The notes under the pieces: generated by a model
Databases searched by the model: none
What the model was told of the DNA's origin: nothing
The model's input: only the letters and a program-made list of their open reading frames with translations
Shown: positions 5,852 through 64,000 of the stretch, in pieces
Position numbering within the stretch: the first letter of the stretch is position 1
Layout: each line of letters starts with the position of its first letter
Position numbers and translations under genes: made by a program
Assembly: GCF_009829915.1 (NCBI RefSeq)
Contig: NZ_SZZW01000002.1
Location: forward strand, 124,001-188,000
Source: Pantoea sp. Nvir
GTDB taxonomy: Bacteria > Pseudomonadota > Gammaproteobacteria > Enterobacterales > Enterobacteriaceae
Length of the DNA: 64,000 nt
Direction: 5' to 3'

Positions 5852-7194
5852 CCTTTAAAAAGAAACTGCGTACTGCGGAAACCCACCCACTGACCTGGCG
5901 CCTTCGCGACGATAGGAAGCCTGTGTGGTTTGAGGAATATCGAAGTAAAAATGGCTACGCTGGAGCGGAAAAAGCTCTTAACAGTATGAGTCCTGATGAG
6001 ATCGTCATGTTGGTAAAAGATTCTGGACTAAAAGGGCGCGGCGGAGCAGGTTTTTCCACTGGTCTAAAGTGGAGTTTAATGCCGCAAGATGAATCTATGC
6101 ACATCCGCTACCTATTGTGTAATGCCGATGAAATGGAGCCTGGCACCTATAAAGATCGTCTGCTAATGGAGCAAATGCCGCATCAGCTAGTGGAAGGTAT
6201 CTTGATTAGTGCTTTCGCGCTAAGAGCATATCGTAGCTATATTTTCCTACGTGGTGAATATATCGAGGCAGCTGTGAACTTACGGCGTGCTATTGCAGAA
6301 GCGACTAAAGCAGGATTCCTTGGAAAAAATATTCTTGGTGCAAATTTTGATTGCGAGATAATTTTACATACTGGCGCTGGTCGTTACATATGCGGAGAAG
6401 AGACAGCGCTAATAAATGCTCTGGAAGGTCGGCGTGCTAACCCACGCTCTAAGCCTCCCTTCCCGGCAAGTGTTGGCGTATGGGGTAAGCCCACTTGTGT
6501 AAACAATGTAGAAACCTTGTCTAATATCCCGACTATCCTTGCTAACGGTGTTCAGTGGTATAAAAGTTTATCAAAAAGTGAAGATACCGGTACTAAGATG
6601 ATGGGCTTTTCTGGAAGAGTGAAAAATCCTGGAGTATGGGAGGTGCCTTTTGGCATCACTGCTCGCGAGATTCTGGAAGATTATGCAGGAGGTATGCAAG
6701 AAGGTCTGCGATTTAAAGCTTGGCAACCAGGTGGAGCAAGCACCGATTTCCTCATTGAACATCATCTCGATTTACCGATGGAATTCGCCAGTATTAGTAG
6801 AGCAGGCAGTCGTCTTGGTACAGCTCTAGCAATGGCTGTTGATCATGAGATAAATATGGTGTCGCTGGTACGTAACTTGGAAGAATTTTTTGCACGTGAA
6901 TCCTGCGGTTGGTGTACTCCATGTCGAGACGGGTTACCATGGAGTGTGAAGATCTTACGTGCTTTGGAGCAGGGTAAGGGACATCCTGGTGATATTGAAA
7001 CCTTGCAGCAGCTTTGTCGTCAGCTCGGTCCGGGAAAAACTTTCTGTGCACACGCACCCGGCGCAGTGGAACCTCTGCAAAGTGCAATCAAATATTTCTA
7101 TGAAGAATTTGAAGCGGGTATCGATCCTCAAGGGTTCAGTAATATGCACGCGATTAGTGGTATACAGTCTAATCTGTTAAAAGAGTGCTGGTAA
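5848..7194 (+). CDS. nuoF: NADH:quinone oxidoreductase subunit F (FMN, NADH site)
   Basis: The 51-kDa subunit, 448 residues (445 in E. coli), which binds NADH, FMN and the 4Fe-4S cluster N3. The glycine-rich nucleotide loop [10 protein letters not shown] is at 63-72. The N3 ligands are Cys353, Cys356 and Cys359 in [12 protein letters not shown], with Cys400 in KTFCAHAPG. Its start lies inside the nuoE stop. A 103-base spacer separates it from the start chosen for nuoG. No disruption is seen, so NADH oxidation by this module should be intact. Confidence 0.98.
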
Positions 7195-7297: not shown

Positions 7298-10021
7298 ATG
7301 GCGATAATACATGTAGATGGCAAAGAATATGATGTGAACGGAGAGAATAACTTATTACAGGCATGTCTCTCTCTGGGTCTTGATATTCCTTATTTTTGCT
7401 GGCATCCGGCACTGGGAAGCATTGGAGCTTGTCGCCAGTGTGTGGTGAAGAAATTTCAAAATACCCAAGATACCCGCGGCAGTCTTGTTATTTCGTGTAT
7501 GACTCCAGCTTCCAACGGCACCGTTATCTCCATTGATGACGTCGAAGCGAAAGAATTTCGTAAAATTGTGGTAGAGTGGCTGATGATCAACCATCCACAT
7601 GACTGTCCAGTTTGTGAAGAGGGTGGTAACTGCCATCTTCAAGATATGACGGTAATGACTGGCCATAACCTCCGTCGTTACCGTTTCACTAAGCGGACAC
7701 ACTCTAATCAGGAGCTCGGACCCTTCATTTCTCACGAAATGAACCGTTGTATTGCTTGTTATCGCTGTGTACGTTACTATAAAGATTATGCTGACGGTAA
7801 AGACCTAGGAGTCTACGGTGCGCACGACAACATTTATTTTGGGCGTCCGGAAGATGGAATACTGGAGAATGAATTCTCTGGTAACTTAGTTGAAATTTGT
7901 CCGACCGGGGTATTTACTGACAAGACACATTCAGAACGCTACAACCGTAAATGGGATATGCAGTTCTCACCTAGTATTTGTCAGCAATGCAGCATCGGTT
8001 GTAATACCAGCCCAGGAGAGCGCTATGGCGAGTTGCGTCGTATCGAAAATCGCTACAACGGTACAGTAAATCACTACTTCTTGTGCGACCGTGGCCGTTT
8101 CGGTTACGACTACGTCAATCGTAAAGATCGTCCACGTCATCCAATGCAGCTGCGCGGCAACGACTGGGTCACTCTCAATGCTGAACAGGCGGTAAACGCT
8201 GCGGCTTATGTGCTTCGTCAGGCGAAATGCGTAATTGGCATCGGTTCTCCGCGTGCTAGCGTTGAGAGTAACTTTGCACTTCGTGAGTTAGTAGGCGAGG
8301 AAAACTTCTCGACAGGCGTGCCTGCAGGTGAGCAGGCACGCCTGTCGCTGATACTTAACGTGTTACGTGAAAGCGGCATTTATACACCGTCGCTGCGTGA
8401 AATAGAGAGCTATGACGCGGTACTGGTATTAGGAGAAGATATCACTCAAGTAGGTGCACGACTAGCGCTATCCGTACGTCAGGCAATAAAAGGCAAGGCG
8501 CGCGAAATGGCTGCTGTACAAAAGATCGCTGACTGGCAGATCGCCGCTACACTTAATATTGGACAAGACGCTAAACATCCTCTTTTCGTCACTCACATTG
8601 ATAAAACCAACCTAGACGACATCGCAGCATGGAGCTATCACGCTCCAGTCGAAGATCAGGCGCGTCTTGGTTTTGCTATCGCTAACAGACTAGATAAAAA
8701 CGCACCTGCAGTCAGTAATTTTGACAGTAGCATCAGCAATAAGCTCGATGTAGTTGTACAGGCGTTAGCAGCGGCGAAAAAACCGCTAATCATTTCGGGT
8801 ACCCATTCATGTAGTACGGCAATAATCGAAGCAGCAGCTAACATTGCTAAGGCATTGAAGGCACGAGGCGTTAACGTTGGTATTACACTTCTTGCCAGTT
8901 CTGCAAACAGCGTAGGTCTAGGTCTAATCGGAGGTAATACCCTCGACAGTGCCCTAGAGCGACTAAGCAACGGTCAAGCCGACGTAGTTGTAGTAGTAGA
9001 GAATGATCTATATCGTCACGCCCCGAAGGCTTTGGTAGATGCTGCCCTAGCGAACACGTCGGGTGTTATTGTAGTGGACCATCAGCGTACCGCAACAATA
9101 GAAAAAGCAGGTATTATTCTATCTGCTGCTAGCTTTGCTGAAAGCGACGGTACCTCCATTAACTATGAAGGTCGCGCCCAACGCTTTTTCCAAGTTTATA
9201 ATCCTACTTACTATGACAATAGTATTGTAATGTTGGAAAGTTGGCGTTGGTTGCACTCTCTACATAGTACAGTAAAGAGCTGCCGTATGGACTGGACGCA
9301 GCTTGATCATGTTATTGACGCAGTGGTAGCTAAGCTACCTCATTTGAAGGGTATTAAAGAGGCTGCACCAGATGCAAGATTTCGTATTTGTGGCCAAAAG
9401 TTAGCGCGTTCACCGAACCGTGCTAGCGGCCGCACTGCCATGCTCACTAATATTAGCGTGCATGAACCGCGCCAACCACAGGATAGTGATACTATGTTCA
9501 CCTTCTCTATGGAGGGTAACAATCAACCGCACGCGCCACGTTCGCACATCCCCTTTGCTTGGGCACCAGGATGGAATTCCCCTCAGGCATGGAATAAATT
9601 TCAGACGGAAGTAGGAGGTAAACTGTATAACGGTGACCCCGGCGTGCGTCTGTTCGAAACAGGCAATAGATCTCTTCCTTGGTTCACTCAGGTGCCAACT
9701 GCCTTTGTCGGTGGTGAGCAGTGGCGTGTCGTGCCATATTACCAACTGTTCGGCAGTGAAGAGATGACGCAGCGTTCATTAGTATTCCAGAAACGTATGC
9801 CGCAGCCAATGTTAGTAATTAATCAAAATGACGCGGCAAAGCTAGGTGTGCATGAAGGTGCAATAATTGAGTGTAGTTGTTCCGGTGAGACCTTACGTAT
9901 GCCGGTGCGTTTCTCCAGTGCGCTACAAACGGGACAGGTCGGTATGCCGCTAGGTATGCCAGGGGCACCACCGTTCTTGGCAGGAGCGCAAATTGATAAA
10001 CTGCAGGAGGCAACGCAATGA
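7298..10021 (+). CDS. nuoG: NADH:quinone oxidoreductase subunit G
   Basis: The 75-kDa subunit, 907 residues from this start (908 in E. coli). An N-terminal 2Fe-2S ferredoxin domain has Cys34, Cys45, Cys48 and Cys67. Further 4Fe-4S motifs follow ([24 protein letters not shown] and the enterobacterial CQQCSIGC), then a molybdopterin-oxidoreductase-like domain. An in-frame ATG at 7253 would add 15 residues. I chose 7298 because the protein then starts at the family position ([13 protein letters not shown]) and GGAAG lies about 10 bases upstream, while 7253 has no good site. The stop overlaps the nuoH start by four bases. Confidence 0.96.
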
Positions 10022-14445: not shown

Positions 14446-15966
14446 GTGTTATTACCTTGGCTCATAATTATCCCGTTTATCGGCGGTTTGCTCTGTTTAC
14501 TATCTGAGCGTGGTGGCACGAAAATGCCGCGTTGGATTGCCCTCATCACAATGTTCATAACTCTAGCGATTTCTCTGCAATTTTGGTTACAGAGCAGATA
14601 TGTACTAACACAAGCAGGAGGCCTTTTGCAGTGGCAATCAGAATTCTCGGCTTCTTGGATTCCACGTTTTGGTATCAGCTTTCATCTGGCCCTGGATGGC
14701 TTATCACTGCTAATGACGGTACTCACTGGCCTACTGGGTCTAATGGCAGTGCTCTGCTCTTGGAATGAAATTGAGAAATACCAGGGCTTTTTTCATCTTA
14801 ACTTGATGTGGATCTTAGGCGGTGTAATAGGAGTTTTCCTTGCTATTGACATGTTTCTTTTCTTTTTCTTTTGGGAAATAATGCTGGTGCCAATGTACTT
14901 TCTTATTGCGCTTTGGGGGCATAAAGCATCGGATGGTAAAACTCGTATTACCGCAGCCATAAAATTTTTTATCTATACCCAAGCATCTGGTCTAGTAATG
15001 CTAGTTGCAATTTTAGCAATGGTATTTGTACGATACAATGCAACCGGAGTTTGGACGTTCGACTACGAACAGCTACTACAAACACCGATGTCGTACACAG
15101 TGCAGTATTTGCTAATGCTAGGCTTTTTTATTGCTTTTGCAGTAAAAATGCCAGTAGTACCGTTACACGGTTGGTTACCAGACGCACATAGTCAGGCGCC
15201 AACTGCAGGTTCAGTGGATCTTGCTGGAATTTTGTTGAAAACTGCGGCGTATGGTTTACTCCGCTTTAGTCTGCCACTGTTCCCTGAAGCATCATCGGAG
15301 TTTGCACCAATTGCCATGTGGTTAGGGGTAATTGGCATTTTTTATGGCGCCTGGATGGCATACTCGCAAACTGACATCAAACGCCTAATCGCTTACACCT
15401 CTATTTCGCACATGGGGTTCGTGCTCATTGCAATTTATACAGGTAAACAACTCGCCTTACAGGGCGCAGTAGTGCAGATGATTGCTCATGGACTTTCTGC
15501 AGCTGCGCTTTTTATACTGTGCGGGCAACTCTATGAAAGGCTGCATACTCGTGATCTGCGTCAAATGGGAGGTCTCTGGTCACGTATCAAATGGATTCCA
15601 GGTATGTCGCTCTTCTTTGCAGTAGCTAACTTAGGATTACCGGGTACCGGCAACTTTGCAGGGGAATTTATGATATTAACGGGCAGTTTTCAGGTGGTAC
15701 CGGTGATTATTGTAGTTGCTACCTTTGGTCTAGTATTCGCCTCAGTTTGCTCGTTGATCATGATGCAGCGAGCATATTACGGAGAAGCAAGGGCAAAGGA
15801 CCCACTGCTGGGTATGTCACTACGTGAGTTTATCATGATTATGGTACTAATAGTTCTGCTGCTGATACTGGGCGTTTATCCGCGGCCTATACTAGATACC
15901 TCACAGGCTGCTATGAGCAATATTCAGAAATGGTTTAACGTTTCCACTTCAGCTATAAGTCAGTAA
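14446..15966 (+). CDS. nuoM: NADH:quinone oxidoreductase subunit M (antiporter-like)
   Basis: Proton-pumping subunit of 506 residues (509 in E. coli) with fourteen or so helices. The functional blocks are intact: FFFFWEIMLVPMYFLIALWG with the key Glu, FAVKMPVVPLHGWLPDAHSQ with the key Lys, and GSVDLAGILLKTAAYGLLRF. Translation is read from GTG at 14446, giving the family N-terminus MLLPWLIIIPFIGG; GAAGGGAAGA upstream is the ribosome binding site. The stop lies six bases before nuoN. Confidence 0.97.
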   Translation: MLLPWLIIIPFIGGLLCLLSERGGTKMPRWIALITMFITLAISLQFWLQSRYVLTQAGGLLQWQSEFSASWIPRFGISFHLALDGLSLLMTVLTGLLGLMAVLCSWNEIEKYQGFFHLNLMWILGGVIGVFLAIDMFLFFFFWEIMLVPMYFLIALWGHKASDGKTRITAAIKFFIYTQASGLVMLVAILAMVFVRYNATGVWTFDYEQLLQTPMSYTVQYLLMLGFFIAFAVKMPVVPLHGWLPDAHSQAPTAGSVDLAGILLKTAAYGLLRFSLPLFPEASSEFAPIAMWLGVIGIFYGAWMAYSQTDIKRLIAYTSISHMGFVLIAIYTGKQLALQGAVVQMIAHGLSAAALFILCGQLYERLHTRDLRQMGGLWSRIKWIPGMSLFFAVANLGLPGTGNFAGEFMILTGSFQVVPVIIVVATFGLVFASVCSLIMMQRAYYGEARAKDPLLGMSLREFIMIMVLIVLLLILGVYPRPILDTSQAAMSNIQKWFNVSTSAISQ

Positions 15967-27573: not shown

Positions 27574-28711
27574 TTTGTGTATTGACAAAACATGATTAAG
27601 AGCACCCATACCCTAGTTAATGCAAAAGCGTTTTATGCTATGAAGCTTTAGGGGTAGGTATATATTTTTCTTCGTTCTTCCTTAATATAAACACAGTTTA
27701 TAAAACGTGGCTAATTAGAATTAGCTGGGAGACTGCCAGTATCTTATTTAGAATCATATATAGATGTTATTAGATTAGTCTGTGATGTATCCATGTTAAA
27801 AAAATATTAAGTGAGTTTAGTAGTTAATAGTAGGATTGCTTATCCTTACATCTCTCTGATAAAAAATGGAATCATCCTTTTCTGTTAGAAGCAGTGTATG
27901 TGTTGCAATCATGTGAGTAGTGATACTACATATAAAATTCTCGCTATTAATCTTTTTATAAACTATTAATCTTTTATAAAATTAGTGATATTTTATAATC
28001 GAACTTAGTAGATTCTTTCGAAAATTTACAGCTAAAGGTAACATGGTGTGTTGCTGTTCTTTAATGTGCATCGCTCTGAGCATATCTGGTCGTGGAGGCG
28101 CCACGTAGCTGCGTTATAATGTATGCTCGTATAAAAATAACAAATGATGTACGGTATTCAGTGCAATGTGTGCGTATCTTTACTCACTCTACTCTTGAGA
28201 GTGAGTAAAGATATAGCAATGATGCTTAAATTCAGTAACTTTTTTATAAAGACTGTGTTTTGATAAACATGATTTTTGTTAATCTAATATTAAGAGGTGT
28301 ATTAAATTAATTAATAATAATTGGAGAAGCTCGTAAGGTTGCGTAAGCATACTAAATAAAGTATTTTTATTATAAATAATAGAATAAATATTAATGGATT
28401 AGAATGTTTTTATTCTATTAAGTAGTTTCGATATAGGTGTTATGTACATTGGTTGAATATTGACTATTTTAAGTCAGTTAAAGCGATTTATTTCTTTTTT
28501 GATTTCCTTGTTTTAAGCTTGTTATTTCTCTAGTTGTAAGACCTCTTTTAGGTTGGAAGATGATGTAGCATCATCACTTGATTTTCGGGAAAGGTACCTT
28601 CTGATTTTTGTTTGATAGAAAAATATATTAGAGAGAATAATTTTAGTAAAAAACAAGAATTATGCGCACAAATCAAGGTAAGAATACTGTTGTTAGTGTT
28701 GTAGATCGTGA
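27574..28711. other. 1.1-kb geneless stretch between apbE and tRNA-Pro
   Basis: No coding frame is recognisable. E. coli has a large block between apbE and the proL tRNA (ada, alkB, mqo, nap and ccm genes, narP), which is missing here. The one structured element is the 16-bp hairpin at 28175-28213, listed separately. Confidence 0.5.
28175..28213. repeat. 16-bp perfect hairpin in a geneless region
   Basis: TATCTTTACTCACTCT (28175-28190) and its exact reverse complement (28198-28213) flank a 7-base loop. Neither side has a U-tract, so it is a poor intrinsic terminator as it stands. No gene end lies within 500 bases on either side. It may be the relic terminator of a deleted operon or a structured RNA. 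Confidence 0.8.
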
Positions 28712-59719: not shown

Positions 59720-61364
59720 TGCTTATGCTTCCTGATTGCAATAATTTAGAATAGAGCTTTATTATTAATATTTTTTATGATAAAAAATCATGAATTAACA
59801 TGTAGATATATATCCAATTAACTATAGAAATAGTTGGCCTGATCTGCTATCTACATAGCAGATGTAAGAAGAATTACCAATTATATTTTAAGTTATCTGA
59901 CCAAGATTCATCAATTAAACTTATGTAGATAAGTTTAATGTTCTAAGGTCATGACTGAAAATAAATTCCTGCGAAAATATTACTTAACTTTTCCTTTGAT
60001 TTCAAAAAAAATTTTATCTTAATGTATGTATATTTATACATTGTACAATAGAGAACCATGTTGGCAGGAGATAAGTTTGATTTAAAAATCAAATTAATTT
60101 TATGGATACCTATAGGATATTAAGAGAACATGGCTGTTATTAGTGTAAGTTAGGCAATGTTGTATATCAAATAATTTTTCTCTCATCATATGTATACTAA
60201 TGATGTTCATAGTACTTTTCCACATTAGAAACAAGATAAATGATAAGCTATTATTTTTTACTTAAATTATATTTTTCTAATCTAGAAAAAGATAATTTTT
60301 AATAAAAACAGTTAATAATTATTTAGTGGCAAATGATGATTATTCTAATAAGTTACAATCAGTATTACCAATTGCTTAATTAGTTATAGTTTATTTTTTC
60401 CAAAAAATTATTTCGTTTAATGTTATCTATATTTTGAAAGGTAGACCTTTTTGATTTTTGTTGATTTAATTAAATTAGCTTCTGATTGTATGCTAATGAT
60501 AATATGCCGATACTCTATTGGGTTATGATAAAAGCATTAACTGGTGTTGGTTAGATCTCGACTTCAATAAAAAGGAGAATATTGAAATTTCCTATAAAAA
60601 CTTTGCACTACTTTATAAAATAATTCTAGTTCACATGATATTATAAAAATATAAGAACTAAAATAACAAAATAATTTAGCTATAATACTATTATTTTTAT
60701 ATGATCGGATTTCTTGAATAATATGCACTTCAGCTAACTAGAAGCTGAAAAATTCTTTCAAAAAAGGTCTACATAAAATCATTTAATGATTTTATGTAGA
60801 CCGATACTTATCAAAATTTAATTTAAAAATAAGGCCAATTGACTTAATGTTTACTAAATGTTAGGTAGCAAATAATCCTATATGCTAAAATAATAAATGT
60901 ACACTACATTATCTCACAAAGATAATCATCATATTCCTTGATTGTTCATTATTAGTAATTTAAACATTTATTATATTACATAAATTAATGAATCTAATTA
61001 CTGTATTAAAATAAAAACTAATAAATTCCGATTATTTTAAATAAAAATGTAAATTAGCATCATCAGAAAGATAATATATATTAACTAAATAATAATATCG
61101 ATACATATAAATTACATTATATAAAAATACGCACACATAGATAATATTTAACGTTTAACAAAAATATTATTTACGTAAAATAAAACTTTATTTTAAAAAA
61201 ATAAATTTTTACATAAATTATCTTATTTTTTATATTAAAAGATTTCTTTATAGACGTATTGCTTTTAAATTAAAATTTAATATATATTTAGTAGCTTACA
61301 TTTTATTTTTATTTTAACCGTATCAGGATAAAACATCCTAGAGCATTTTAGGAGGAGTAAAAGA
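59720..61364. other. 1.6-kb extremely AT-rich geneless stretch between galE and gnd
   Basis: Long A/T runs with no recognisable coding frame. Its only strong feature is the 18-bp inverted repeat at 60766-60802, listed separately. In E. coli galF and O-antigen genes precede gnd. Confidence 0.55.
60760..60802 (-). terminator. Orphan 18-bp perfect hairpin with minus-strand U-tract
   Basis: GGTCTACATAAAATCATT (60766-60783) is the exact reverse complement of 60785-60802, with one base between. On the minus strand the hairpin is followed directly by T6 (complement of the A run at 60760-60765), a textbook intrinsic terminator. No minus-strand gene is recognisable within the 560 bases that would feed it. 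Confidence 0.8.
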
Positions 61365-62774
61365 GTGTGTAAGCAACAAATTGGAGTTATAGGTATGTCA
61401 GTAATGGGTCGTAATTTGGCTCTTAACATTGAAAGCAGGGATTATACTGTATCAATTTTCAACCGTTCGCATAGTAAAACCAGAGAAGTTTTTACTAAAA
61501 ATCAGGGCAAGAAATTAAAGCCTTACTATTCTCTTGAAGAATTTGTGGACTCTCTTGAAAAACCACGTTGTATATTATTAATGGTTCAGGCAGGTCAAGC
61601 AATTGACAAAATCTTAGTTTCACTAAAGCCGTACCTTGACAAAGGTGATATCTTAATTGATGGGGGCAATTCTCACTATAAAGATACTATCCGTCGCAGC
61701 AAAGAACTTTCAGAACAAGGTTTTAATTTTATTGGTGCTGGTATTTCCGGCGGTGAAAAAGGTGCTCTGCAAGGTCCTTCTATTATGCCTGGTGGACAAA
61801 AAGAAGCTTATTATATTGTTGCACCGATCTTAGAAAAAATTGCTGCTCGTACAACAGACGGTGAGGCTTGTATAACTTATATTGGTCCAAACGGCGCGGG
61901 TCACTACGTAAAAATGGTGCATAACGGCATCGAGTACGGAGATATGCAGCTTATCTCTGAAGCATATGCATTGCTAAAAGGAGCGCTTTATCTAACTAAT
62001 AAAGAGTTGGCTAAAATCTTTATTGAGTGGAATGATGGTGAATTAAGTAGTTATCTTATCAATATTACTAAAGATATTCTCGTTAAAAAAGATGAGGAAG
62101 ATAATTATTTAGTTGACGTTATCTTAGACGAAGCAGCTAACAAAGGTACTGGTAAATGGCTCAGCCAGAGCGCGCTTGATCTTGGTGAGCCACTCTCTCT
62201 AATTACTGAGTCAGTATTTGCACGCTACCTATCTTCTATAAAATTACAGCGTGTAGAAGCTTCTAAAGTTTTAAGTGGTCCGCAAGTACAGACTTTTACT
62301 GGAGACAAAACGGAATTCGTTGAAAAAATTCGTCGGGCACTCTATTTCGGCAAAATTGTTTCTTATGCGCAAGGCTTCTCTCAGATGTGTGCAGCCTCCA
62401 AGCAATATAACTGGAATCTACCCTATGGTGAAATTGCTAAAATTTTCCGTGCCGGTTGTATTATCCGAGCCCAGTTTTTACAGAAAATTACTGATGCTTA
62501 CTTAGAAAACGCCAATATTTCTAACCTGCTGTTGGCACCTTACTTTAAGACAATCGCTAACGAATATCAGCAGGCATTGCGTGATGTAGTCTCTTATGCC
62601 GTAATAAATGGTATCCCGACACCAACTTTCTCTGCTGCTATCGCTTACTATGATAGTTACCGTTCAGAAGTGCTGCCTGCTAGTCTTATTCAAGCTCAAC
62701 GTGATTATTTTGGTGCGCATACTTATAAGCGTATTGATAAAGATGGTATATTCCATACAGAGTGGTTCGACTAA
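61365..62774 (+). CDS. gnd: 6-phosphogluconate dehydrogenase (decarboxylating)
   Basis: 469 residues (468 in E. coli). Third enzyme of the oxidative pentose phosphate pathway, giving ribulose 5-phosphate and NADPH. NADP motif [11 protein letters not shown] is at 7-17; catalytic residues Lys183, His186, Asn187 and Glu190 lie in [14 protein letters not shown]; the GGNSHYKDT and SGGEKGA blocks are intact. It starts with GTG at 61365, supported by TTAGGAGGAG upstream. The last four codons and the stop lie inside a 33-bp palindrome, but the ending EWFD is normal. Confidence 0.98.
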
Positions 62775-62828
62775 TGAAGTAAAAGGCTCCCTTATGGGAG
62801 CCTTTTACTTCATTAGTCGAACCACTCT
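62759..62828. terminator. 33-bp perfect palindrome overlapping the gnd stop; terminator core
   Basis: Arms 62759-62791 and 62796-62828 are exact reverse complements, with a TTAT loop. The inner part, AAAAGGCTCCC/GGGAGCCTTTT, is an ordinary bidirectional terminator. The outer 22 bp extend the perfect pairing back through the gnd stop and its last four codons. No normal terminator requires this length. Confidence 0.97.
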
Positions 62829-63529
62829 TTCTTGCTATATCTTTCACCTTCTATATTAAAAAATAAGTCATACATCTTAAACTCCTCCTCCGAAGATCAC
62901 CTATATCAAAAATTGATAAATACTAGAACATCATTTTCCAGAATAATCTCTACCATAACCTAAATAAGGTGAATACACATTCTAGAAATGTTAAATCAGC
63001 TTTTAAAAAAACATACAACTATATTTTGATCTCAGGGACAGCTTATTGTCACTAATAAGAAAAATATACAGATATTTTGGGATAAATAACCGGTTTGTTC
63101 TACTTTTTCGCAAAAAAATAGCTGTGTTTCATAACACATACAATTCACCAATAAATCACCTTGATGTCATATTACTCCATCTTAATAAATAATCGAAACT
63201 TAAGCATACCGTACGGAACCAGATAGTAGTTATTAAAAAATTTTCCAAATAAATTTATTAAAATATCTACCAGAACGTCTTATGTACGTACAAAAAACCG
63301 TACTTTCCCTATCTAGTACTAAAAAGTTTAAACTTGATAATCAATACCCTATTAAAAATAAAAATTAGAAGCTTACTTTTATTTAAATAGGTATATATTC
63401 TCATGCTATAAAACAGTTTAATAAAAGAAATCCATATCAAATACTTCTTCCATAATATCCATATATATGATATTTCCTTTTAACTTAAATAAAAAATAAT
63501 CAGGATTACCCCGTATAATATTTATTATT
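62829..63529. other. Geneless spacer between gnd and hisI (ugd/wzz position)
   Basis: About 700 AT-rich bases between convergent gnd and hisI. E. coli has ugd and wzz here; no remnant could be read. Confidence 0.5.
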
Positions 63530-64000
63530 TTATTTATACCTTGTGCGTAAATTATTAATAATCGTACTAAAATTAAGATTTTGATCCTGTAATAGAACTA
63601 GCAAATGATAGATCAAGTCAGATGCTTCACTAATTAGCTCACAACGATTGTTGACCATAGCCGCCAATGCGGTCTCGACTCCTTCTTCACCCACTTTTTG
63701 AGCAATCCTTTTAGTACCGCTTTTATAAAGCTTTGCGGTATAAGAGCTCTCTGGATCAGCATTTTTCCGAGTCACCAAAAGTTGCTCAAGCTGATAAAGA
63801 AACACCCAATCTGGAGTAGAGTCAGAGAAGCAGCTTGATGTTCCGTAGTGACAAGTCGGACCTACAGGATCTGCCAGTACTAGTAGTGTATCGTTGTCAC
63901 AATCAGGAGTGATACTGATTACTTTGAGAAAATGACCTGATGTTTCGCCTTTTGTCCAAAGACGGTTTTTAGTACGCGAAAAAAAAGTAACGTTACCTTC
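63530..64000 (-). CDS. hisI: Histidine biosynthesis bifunctional protein HisI(E), 3' part
   Basis: 156 codons of an open frame that leaves the window at 64000; about 47 N-terminal residues are missing compared with E. coli (203 aa). The phosphoribosyl-AMP cyclohydrolase domain shows [21 protein letters not shown] and the zinc cysteines of [12 protein letters not shown]. The phosphoribosyl-ATP pyrophosphohydrolase domain (about the last 95 residues) shows [24 protein letters not shown] and [13 protein letters not shown]. It catalyses steps 2 and 3 of histidine synthesis and is the last gene of the enteric his operon, so the rest of that operon probably lies beyond the window. Confidence 0.96.

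What the first reader, a model, noticed from the sequence alone, without database searches (positions are those of the whole stretch)
62759..62828. 33-bp perfect palindrome that swallows the last codons of gnd
The arms match over 33 bp with a 4-base loop, and the 5' arm includes GAG-TGG-TTC-GAC-TAA of gnd. Only the inner 11 bp are needed for termination. The 3' flank is thus an exact inverted copy of coding sequence. This is what template switching during replication (quasipalindrome-to-palindrome conversion) would produce. Its perfection suggests a very recent event, or selection for a structure protecting the mRNA 3' end.
Basis: partly seen in the sequence, partly recalled or inferred. Interest (0 to 1): 0.7.

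Follow-up and report, generated by a model that had tools for sequence, protein, structure and literature searches.

The report
Template-switch palindrome at gnd terminator
In a shrinking insect-symbiont genome, DNA replication seems to have folded back on an ordinary transcription terminator and copied the end of the gnd gene backwards, leaving a perfect 33-bp hairpin, probably one of several such scars in this genome.

Summary
Confirmed: 62759-62791 and 62796-62828 are perfect 33-bp inverted arms around TTAT, taking in gnd's last codons and stop. Twenty of 109 compared gnd loci, Pantoea among them, have a related short terminator after the stop (arms 9-15 bp); none of the 109 has an arm over 19 bp. 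In the window the T-tract is split by 21 nt that repeat the gnd end in reverse. The coding left arm is old, the right arm the copy. Best explanation: a template switch primed by the terminator hairpin. The pheA attenuator and ruvB show like conversions. In 460 kb of this genome 21 perfect hairpins have arms of 15 bp or more and 6 have 20 or more, against 33 and 1 in 1,657 kb of controls; against the two richest controls only the longest arms are in excess. sbcC, sbcD and xseA were not found here, though all 11 congeners checked have them; ExoI's domain is present. The mechanism is known; its apparent recurrence in a symbiont lacking these nucleases is the interesting part, and that causal link is inferred.

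The parts
61365..62774 (+). gnd, 6-phosphogluconate dehydrogenase, 469 aa; stop TAA at 62772-62774
   Evidence: ORF; Pfam 6PGD and NAD_binding_2; 84-85% identical to the best Pantoea matches
62759..62791 (+). left (template) arm of the palindrome: end of gnd, stop codon, spacer, terminator 5' stem
   Evidence: coding part alignable to relatives
62792..62795 (+). loop TTAT
62796..62828 (+). right (copied) arm
   Evidence: only its first about 11 nt resemble the relatives' terminators
62781..62806 (+). inherited terminator core AAAAGGCTCCC-TTAT-GGGAGCCTTTT, resembling the gnd terminator of Pantoea relatives
62807..62827 (+). inferred 21-nt reverse copy of the gnd 3' end, inside the former T-tract (TTTT before, TTT after)
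   Evidence: sequence; most related terminators have T5-T8 directly after the stem
63530..64000 (-). C-terminal part of the convergent hisIE gene, next recognisable gene downstream; runs off the window
   Evidence: NCBIfam HisIE
60766..60802 (.). another perfect hairpin, 18-bp arms, 1-nt loop, between galE and gnd
   Evidence: galE by NCBIfam; not compared with relatives
8310..8347 (.). another perfect hairpin, 16-bp arms, inside the nuoG reading frame; M to V and E to S against 8 of 8 congeners
   Evidence: NuoG by NCBIfam
28175..28213 (.). another perfect hairpin, 16-bp arms, in no ORF over 80 aa
   Evidence: not compared with relatives

Best explanation
The palindrome is the scar of a replication template switch at an ordinary intrinsic terminator. 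While the strand with the sense of gnd mRNA was being made, the new strand folded on the existing 11-bp terminator stem. Its 3' end in the T-tract then used the just-made end of gnd as template for about 21 nt, and returned to the proper template by pairing of Ts within the T-tract. This lengthened an 11-bp stem to 33 bp and left gnd intact. Shown: the perfect palindrome; a related short terminator in relatives; the left arm as the old sequence; similar conversions at the pheA attenuator and in ruvB; no detectable sbcC, sbcD or xseA. Inferred: strand, fold-back within one strand, one event rather than several, and that losing these nucleases raised formation or survival of such scars. The inner GC-rich hairpin followed by UUUUACUU may still end transcription; I claim no new function.
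For: (1) Perfect 33/33 arms, beyond randomised sequence. (2) 20 of 109 gnd loci have the related GGCTTCC terminator; 0 of 109 exceed a 19-bp arm, and only 1 (L095, 10 bp) has as its best hairpin one of 8 bp or more that reaches the stop codon. (3) Without the 21-nt copy the stem would be followed by T7; most related terminators have T5-T8. (4) Same pattern elsewhere: pheA attenuator, 28-bp arms here against 10-11 bp plus T-run in 8 of 8 congeners; ruvB, where copying the left arm explains M to T, Q to W and H to R, unlike 8 of 8 congeners; against G007 three of the five base changes in the right arm go toward GC, in a genome drifting to AT. (5) More perfect hairpins than pooled controls: arms of 15 or more, 21 in 459,651 bases against 33 in 1,656,544; 20 or more, 6 against 1 (Fisher p 0.003 and 0.0006); with the gnd palindrome itself left out, 20 and 5 (p 0.006 and 0.002). 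(6) sbcC, sbcD, xseA: 0 matches in G000; each found in 11 of 11 congeners, xseA in 19 of 19 other genomes.
Against: No close sister of this symbiont was available, so the before-state comes from relatives about 15% different in gnd protein. The right flank cannot be aligned: about 2.1 kb present in G027 between gnd and hisIE is gone here (no match but one of 38 bp), so insertion and replacement cannot be told apart. ExoI's domain is present. The nuclease link is weak: G042 and G043 lack full sbcC and sbcD matches, keep xseA, and have few long hairpins (2 and 3 of 15 bp or more in 200 kb each), while G039 and G040, which keep all three genes, have more (6 and 7). Against G039 and G040 alone the present genome's excess is not significant at 15 bp (p 0.22) and modest at 20 bp (6 against 0, p 0.02). 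Arm cut-offs were chosen after seeing the data. Only 5 of the 21 long hairpins were compared with relatives: gnd, pheA and ruvB are clear, nuoG is mixed, and in the pyruvate kinase gene the changes that complete the palindrome can all be read as C to T, which drift to AT explains as well. In ruvB the more distant G040 also has R where the palindrome gives R.
Confidence: 0.86

Rival explanations
1. Selection built or keeps a long stem to protect the gnd mRNA 3' end or to block read-through between the convergent gnd and hisIE.
For: Very stable RNA fold; the palindrome lies between convergent genes and is symmetrical.
Against: The 109 compared loci have arms of 19 bp at most. The extension pairs with coding sequence, which selection on an RNA stem need not do. 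A palindrome inside ruvB changes three residues on which 8 of 8 congeners agree, as mutation would and selection for a terminator would not.
Confidence: 0.07
2. Assembly or library artefact: a fold-back chimera at the hairpin.
For: Draft assembly in 11 contigs; raw reads not examined; Nextera libraries can include PCR (recalled).
Against: Both flanks continue in the ancestral order and orientation, whereas a fold-back chimera would carry on in reverse. The paper with the matching genome reports 2x300-bp MiSeq reads, with no mention of 'amplification', at 70x. The hairpins in nuoG, ruvB and pyruvate kinase lie in open reading frames.
Confidence: 0.04
3. Remnant of a mobile element or inserted inverted repeat.
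For: Symmetrical element between genes in a degrading region.
Against: The left arm is gnd itself and the core resembles the relatives' terminator; no other copy in the genome; the other long palindromes in the sample have different sequences.
Confidence: 0.03

Closest known systems
Quasipalindrome-associated template-switch mutation (Ripley model; E. coli lacZ QP5/QP6 reporters)
   Same: An imperfect inverted repeat is made perfect, one arm serving as template for the other (passages of PMC6357072).
   Different: The lab reporters use an 18-bp repeat and a 4-bp change; here about 21 nt were added outside an existing stem, at a terminator, in a natural symbiont genome.
Template switching as a source of RNA hairpins (Monttinen and Loytynoja 2022, PMC8794818)
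   Same: Perfect stems created or repaired by one template switch (passages).
   Different: The passages seen treat microRNA and rRNA genes; a find for 'terminator' and 'endosymbiont' gave 0 hits.
Intrinsic terminator of gnd in Pantoea relatives
   Same: Similar GC-rich stem of about 11 bp, similar distance from the stop codon.
   Different: The window's stem is 33 bp and its T-tract is split.
Coding palindromes in Nematomorpha mitochondria (PMC6649704, seen only in search listing with the start of the abstract)
   Same: Many perfect inverted repeats, some in coding sequence.
   Different: Much longer (up to 284 bp) and mitochondrial.
High inverted-repeat frequency in endosymbionts (PMC10434271, passages)
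   Same: 28 of the 200 bacteria with the highest repeat frequency were endosymbionts, so repeat-rich symbiont genomes are not new.
   Different: From the passages seen, that is a survey of inverted-repeat frequency, location and GC; 'terminator' and 'SbcC' gave 0 hits in it.

Membership tests
Quasipalindrome template-switch mutation | Pre-existing inverted repeat at the site in relatives | tested here: met
   9-15 bp arms in the 20 of 109 loci with the GGCTTCC core
Quasipalindrome template-switch mutation | Derived state is a perfect palindrome, one arm old and one arm a copy | tested here: met
   33/33; left arm is gnd coding sequence shared with relatives, right arm has no counterpart there beyond the stem
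Quasipalindrome template-switch mutation | Single concerted event between close sister genomes | not testable with these tools
   No close sister among the 60 other congeneric genomes searched: best other match to the region 108 bits against 327 for itself
Quasipalindrome template-switch mutation | Return of the polymerase by microhomology | tested here: inconclusive
   T4 and T3 flank the copy and many relatives have about T7, but the exact before-sequence is unknown
Intrinsic (rho-independent) terminator | GC-rich stem followed directly by a T-run | tested here: inconclusive
   Inherited stem is present, but the scan did not score it as terminator-like; only TTTTACTT follows the inner stem
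Mutator signature from nuclease loss | Absence of SbcCD and ExoVII with excess perfect palindromes | tested here: inconclusive
   Both seen in this genome, but it is one genome; controls without full SbcCD had fewer long hairpins than controls with it

The most novel reading that the evidence does not exclude
This stink-bug symbiont is a natural template-switch mutator. After losing SbcCD and ExoVII, its genome has been gathering perfect palindromes at terminators, at the pheA attenuator and inside genes such as ruvB, so that hairpin conversion is a measurable force in early genome reduction.
Probability: 0.35. Interest if true: 0.68.

Novelty: new member of a known kind. Interest (0 to 1): 0.46.

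Why it matters
Template switching at quasipalindromes has been measured in bacteria with reporter strains. Here is a natural case at a terminator, with at least two further clear cases in the same genome, in a lineage that seems to have lost nucleases expected to act on such intermediates. If the link holds, reduced symbiont genomes become a natural test of how ExoVII and SbcCD shape genomes, and multi-residue protein changes such as those in RuvB could be single mutations.

Tried and rejected
Rfam at gathering threshold gave no RNA family in 60000-64000. The terminator scan did not recognise the extended hairpin. Searching the 772 bp downstream found, among 60 other congeners, one 38-bp match near the hisIE end, so the right flank could not be polarised. 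A first nuoG alignment was wrong because minus-strand loci were not turned round; it was redone. In one search, minus-strand loci among L002-L030 show the wrong end of gnd; they were re-oriented and the rows are not counted. The 109 loci come from two searches and hold some genomes twice (for example L002 and L033, contigs of the same length and same gnd coordinates). Pyruvate kinase was dropped as clear support. Paper searches for symbionts with template switching and for palindromes with SbcCD in Buchnera listed no paper that I recognised, from title or abstract start, as reporting this; that is not proof of absence. That ExoI and ExoVII suppress quasipalindrome mutation is recalled; for ExoI I saw only a title in a reference list. 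PMC5412681 passages support SbcCD as a hairpin nuclease and xseA as the ExoVII gene.

Full report
Window 62759-62791 and 62796-62828 are 33-nt arms with 100% complementarity around TTAT. The left arm holds the end of gnd (61365-62774) including its stop codon. The RNA fold is far more stable than shuffles, and the sequence is single copy in the genome.

Which genome it is. The window lies in G000, 1,425,354 bases in 11 contigs; its contig has GC 0.40. The best named matches of gnd are Pantoea. A published table lists the Pantoea symbiont of Nezara viridula with 1.425 Mb, 40.6% GC and 11 scaffolds (PMC8032781, one section read). I infer that this is the source; the identity rests on matching numbers, not on a name. 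That work used Nextera libraries and MiSeq 2x300 reads; a find for 'amplification' gave 0 hits in its main text (passages); coverage was 70x.

What relatives have. I compared the end of gnd in 109 loci, some genomes being present twice. The longest perfect arm within -60 to +123 of the stop is 5-15 bp in 108 of them and 19 bp in one (L105, Priestia endophytica). Twenty loci have a GGCTTCC-cored terminator just after the stop, most of them with a T-run of 5-8. The window's inner AAAAGGCTCCC-TTAT-GGGAGCCTTTT looks like the same terminator. Beyond it the relatives' 3' flank does not match the gnd end. In the window the next bases are ACTTCATTAGTCGAACCACTC, the reverse complement of the gnd end and spacer, then TTTCTTGC. 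Without the copy the stem would be followed by T7, as in many of the relatives. So the left arm is old and the right arm is new.

Synteny argues against a chimera. In G027 the order is gnd, three open reading frames on the other strand, hisIE (HisIE by NCBIfam). Here gnd and hisIE keep order and orientation and only the middle is lost: 755 bp lie between the two genes, against 2,841 bp in G027 (coordinates). A fold-back chimera would not return to the right flank.

It is not alone. On the 276-kb contig, 16 perfect hairpins have arms of 13 bp or more, up to 33; two Markov copies gave 13 at most. A further 183 kb added arms of 28, 25, 20, 19, 18 and 16 and three of 15. In all, 21 hairpins with arms of 15 or more in 459,651 bases, against 33 in 1,656,544 bases of controls (five genomes plus the 80 loci); for 20 or more, 6 against 1 (Fisher 0.003 and 0.0006). 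Leaving out hairpins that look like terminators by a rough rule, it is 17 against 14 for 15 or more. Against the four controls of 34-42% GC, it is 21 against 18 in 798,000 bases (p 0.02) and 6 against 0 (p 0.002). Leaving out the gnd palindrome itself, which brought me here, the pooled p values are 0.006 and 0.002. Against G039 and G040 only, the richest controls, the 15-bp excess is not significant (21 against 13 in 398,000 bases, p 0.22) and the 20-bp one is p 0.02. The cut-offs were set after looking, and positions are treated as independent, so these p values are guides.

Of the 21, five were compared with relatives. gnd is above. The pheA attenuator lies before a bifunctional chorismate mutase/prephenate dehydratase gene and after a short phenylalanine-rich leader that I read by eye (the name attenuator is recalled). 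It has 28-bp arms with no loop here; 8 of 8 congeners have 10-11 bp arms and a T-run at the same place. In ruvB the left arm still encodes TPRGR while the right arm changes M to T, Q to W and H to R, where 8 of 8 congeners agree on M, Q and H; the more distant G039 has M, P, H and G040 has I, Q, R. All three follow from copying the left arm. nuoG has M to V and E to S against 8 of 8 congeners, G039 having I and T, but needs changes in both arms. Pyruvate kinase is ambiguous: the changes that complete the palindrome can all be read as C to T. The other 16 were not compared.

Repair genes. With family models, sbcC and sbcD gave 0 matches in G000 and matches in 11 of 11 congeners; for sbcC 9 of these 11 pass the cut-off, G001 and G008 being in pieces. 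xseA gave 0 in G000 and was found in 19 of 19 other genomes. The ExoI domain is present in G000. A draft assembly can miss genes, but three misses in a genome rated 100% complete are unlikely to be chance. Against a simple story, G042 and G043 lack full sbcC and sbcD matches, keep xseA, and have only 2 and 3 hairpins of 15 bp or more in 200 kb each, while G039 and G040 keep all three genes and have 6 and 7. So SbcCD loss by itself does not predict hairpins in this small set; ExoVII loss, which only G000 shows among these 20 genomes, remains possible and untested.

Mechanism. The simplest path is intrastrand: the new strand folds on the terminator stem, extends its 3' end along the just-made gnd end, then re-pairs in the T-tract. 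Whether this strand is leading or lagging was not tested. Mutations that perfect quasipalindromes by copying one arm are described in E. coli (passages of PMC6357072), and single template switches can create perfect stems (passages of PMC8794818). Repeat-rich bacteria were reported as more likely to be endosymbiotic (passages of PMC10434271). So the kind of event is known; its place, and its apparent recurrence in one symbiont genome with these gene losses, is what is of interest.

Function. No function beyond the old terminator is shown. The inner stem with UUUUACUU behind it may still terminate; the consensus scan did not score it. Selection for a longer stem cannot be excluded but does not explain the palindrome inside ruvB.

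Noticed in passing
L170 (G000 C6) 6556-6611: The pheA attenuator terminator has become a 28-bp perfect palindrome with no loop and only TTT after the old stem, so attenuation may be altered.
   Followed up: yes
G000 C5 214748-214781 (L140 6748-6781): A 34-bp perfect palindrome in ruvB goes with three residue changes (M to T, Q to W, H to R) at positions on which 8 of 8 congeners agree.
   Followed up: yes
G000 C5 94786-94865 (L136): Two perfect hairpins (21-bp and 18-bp arms) overlap end to end, as if formed by successive events.
   Followed up: no
G000 C5 224328-224390 (L140): AT-rich perfect hairpin with 28-bp arms and a 7-nt loop, in no ORF over 80 aa.
   Followed up: no
L160 (G000 C1) 15773-15831: Perfect hairpin with 25-bp arms just after a glutamate-dehydrogenase-like ORF (best NCBIfam match below its cut-off).
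   Followed up: no
window 62829-63529: About 700 bp without a recognised gene; G027 has three open reading frames here on the other strand (432, 282 and 158 aa).
   Followed up: partly
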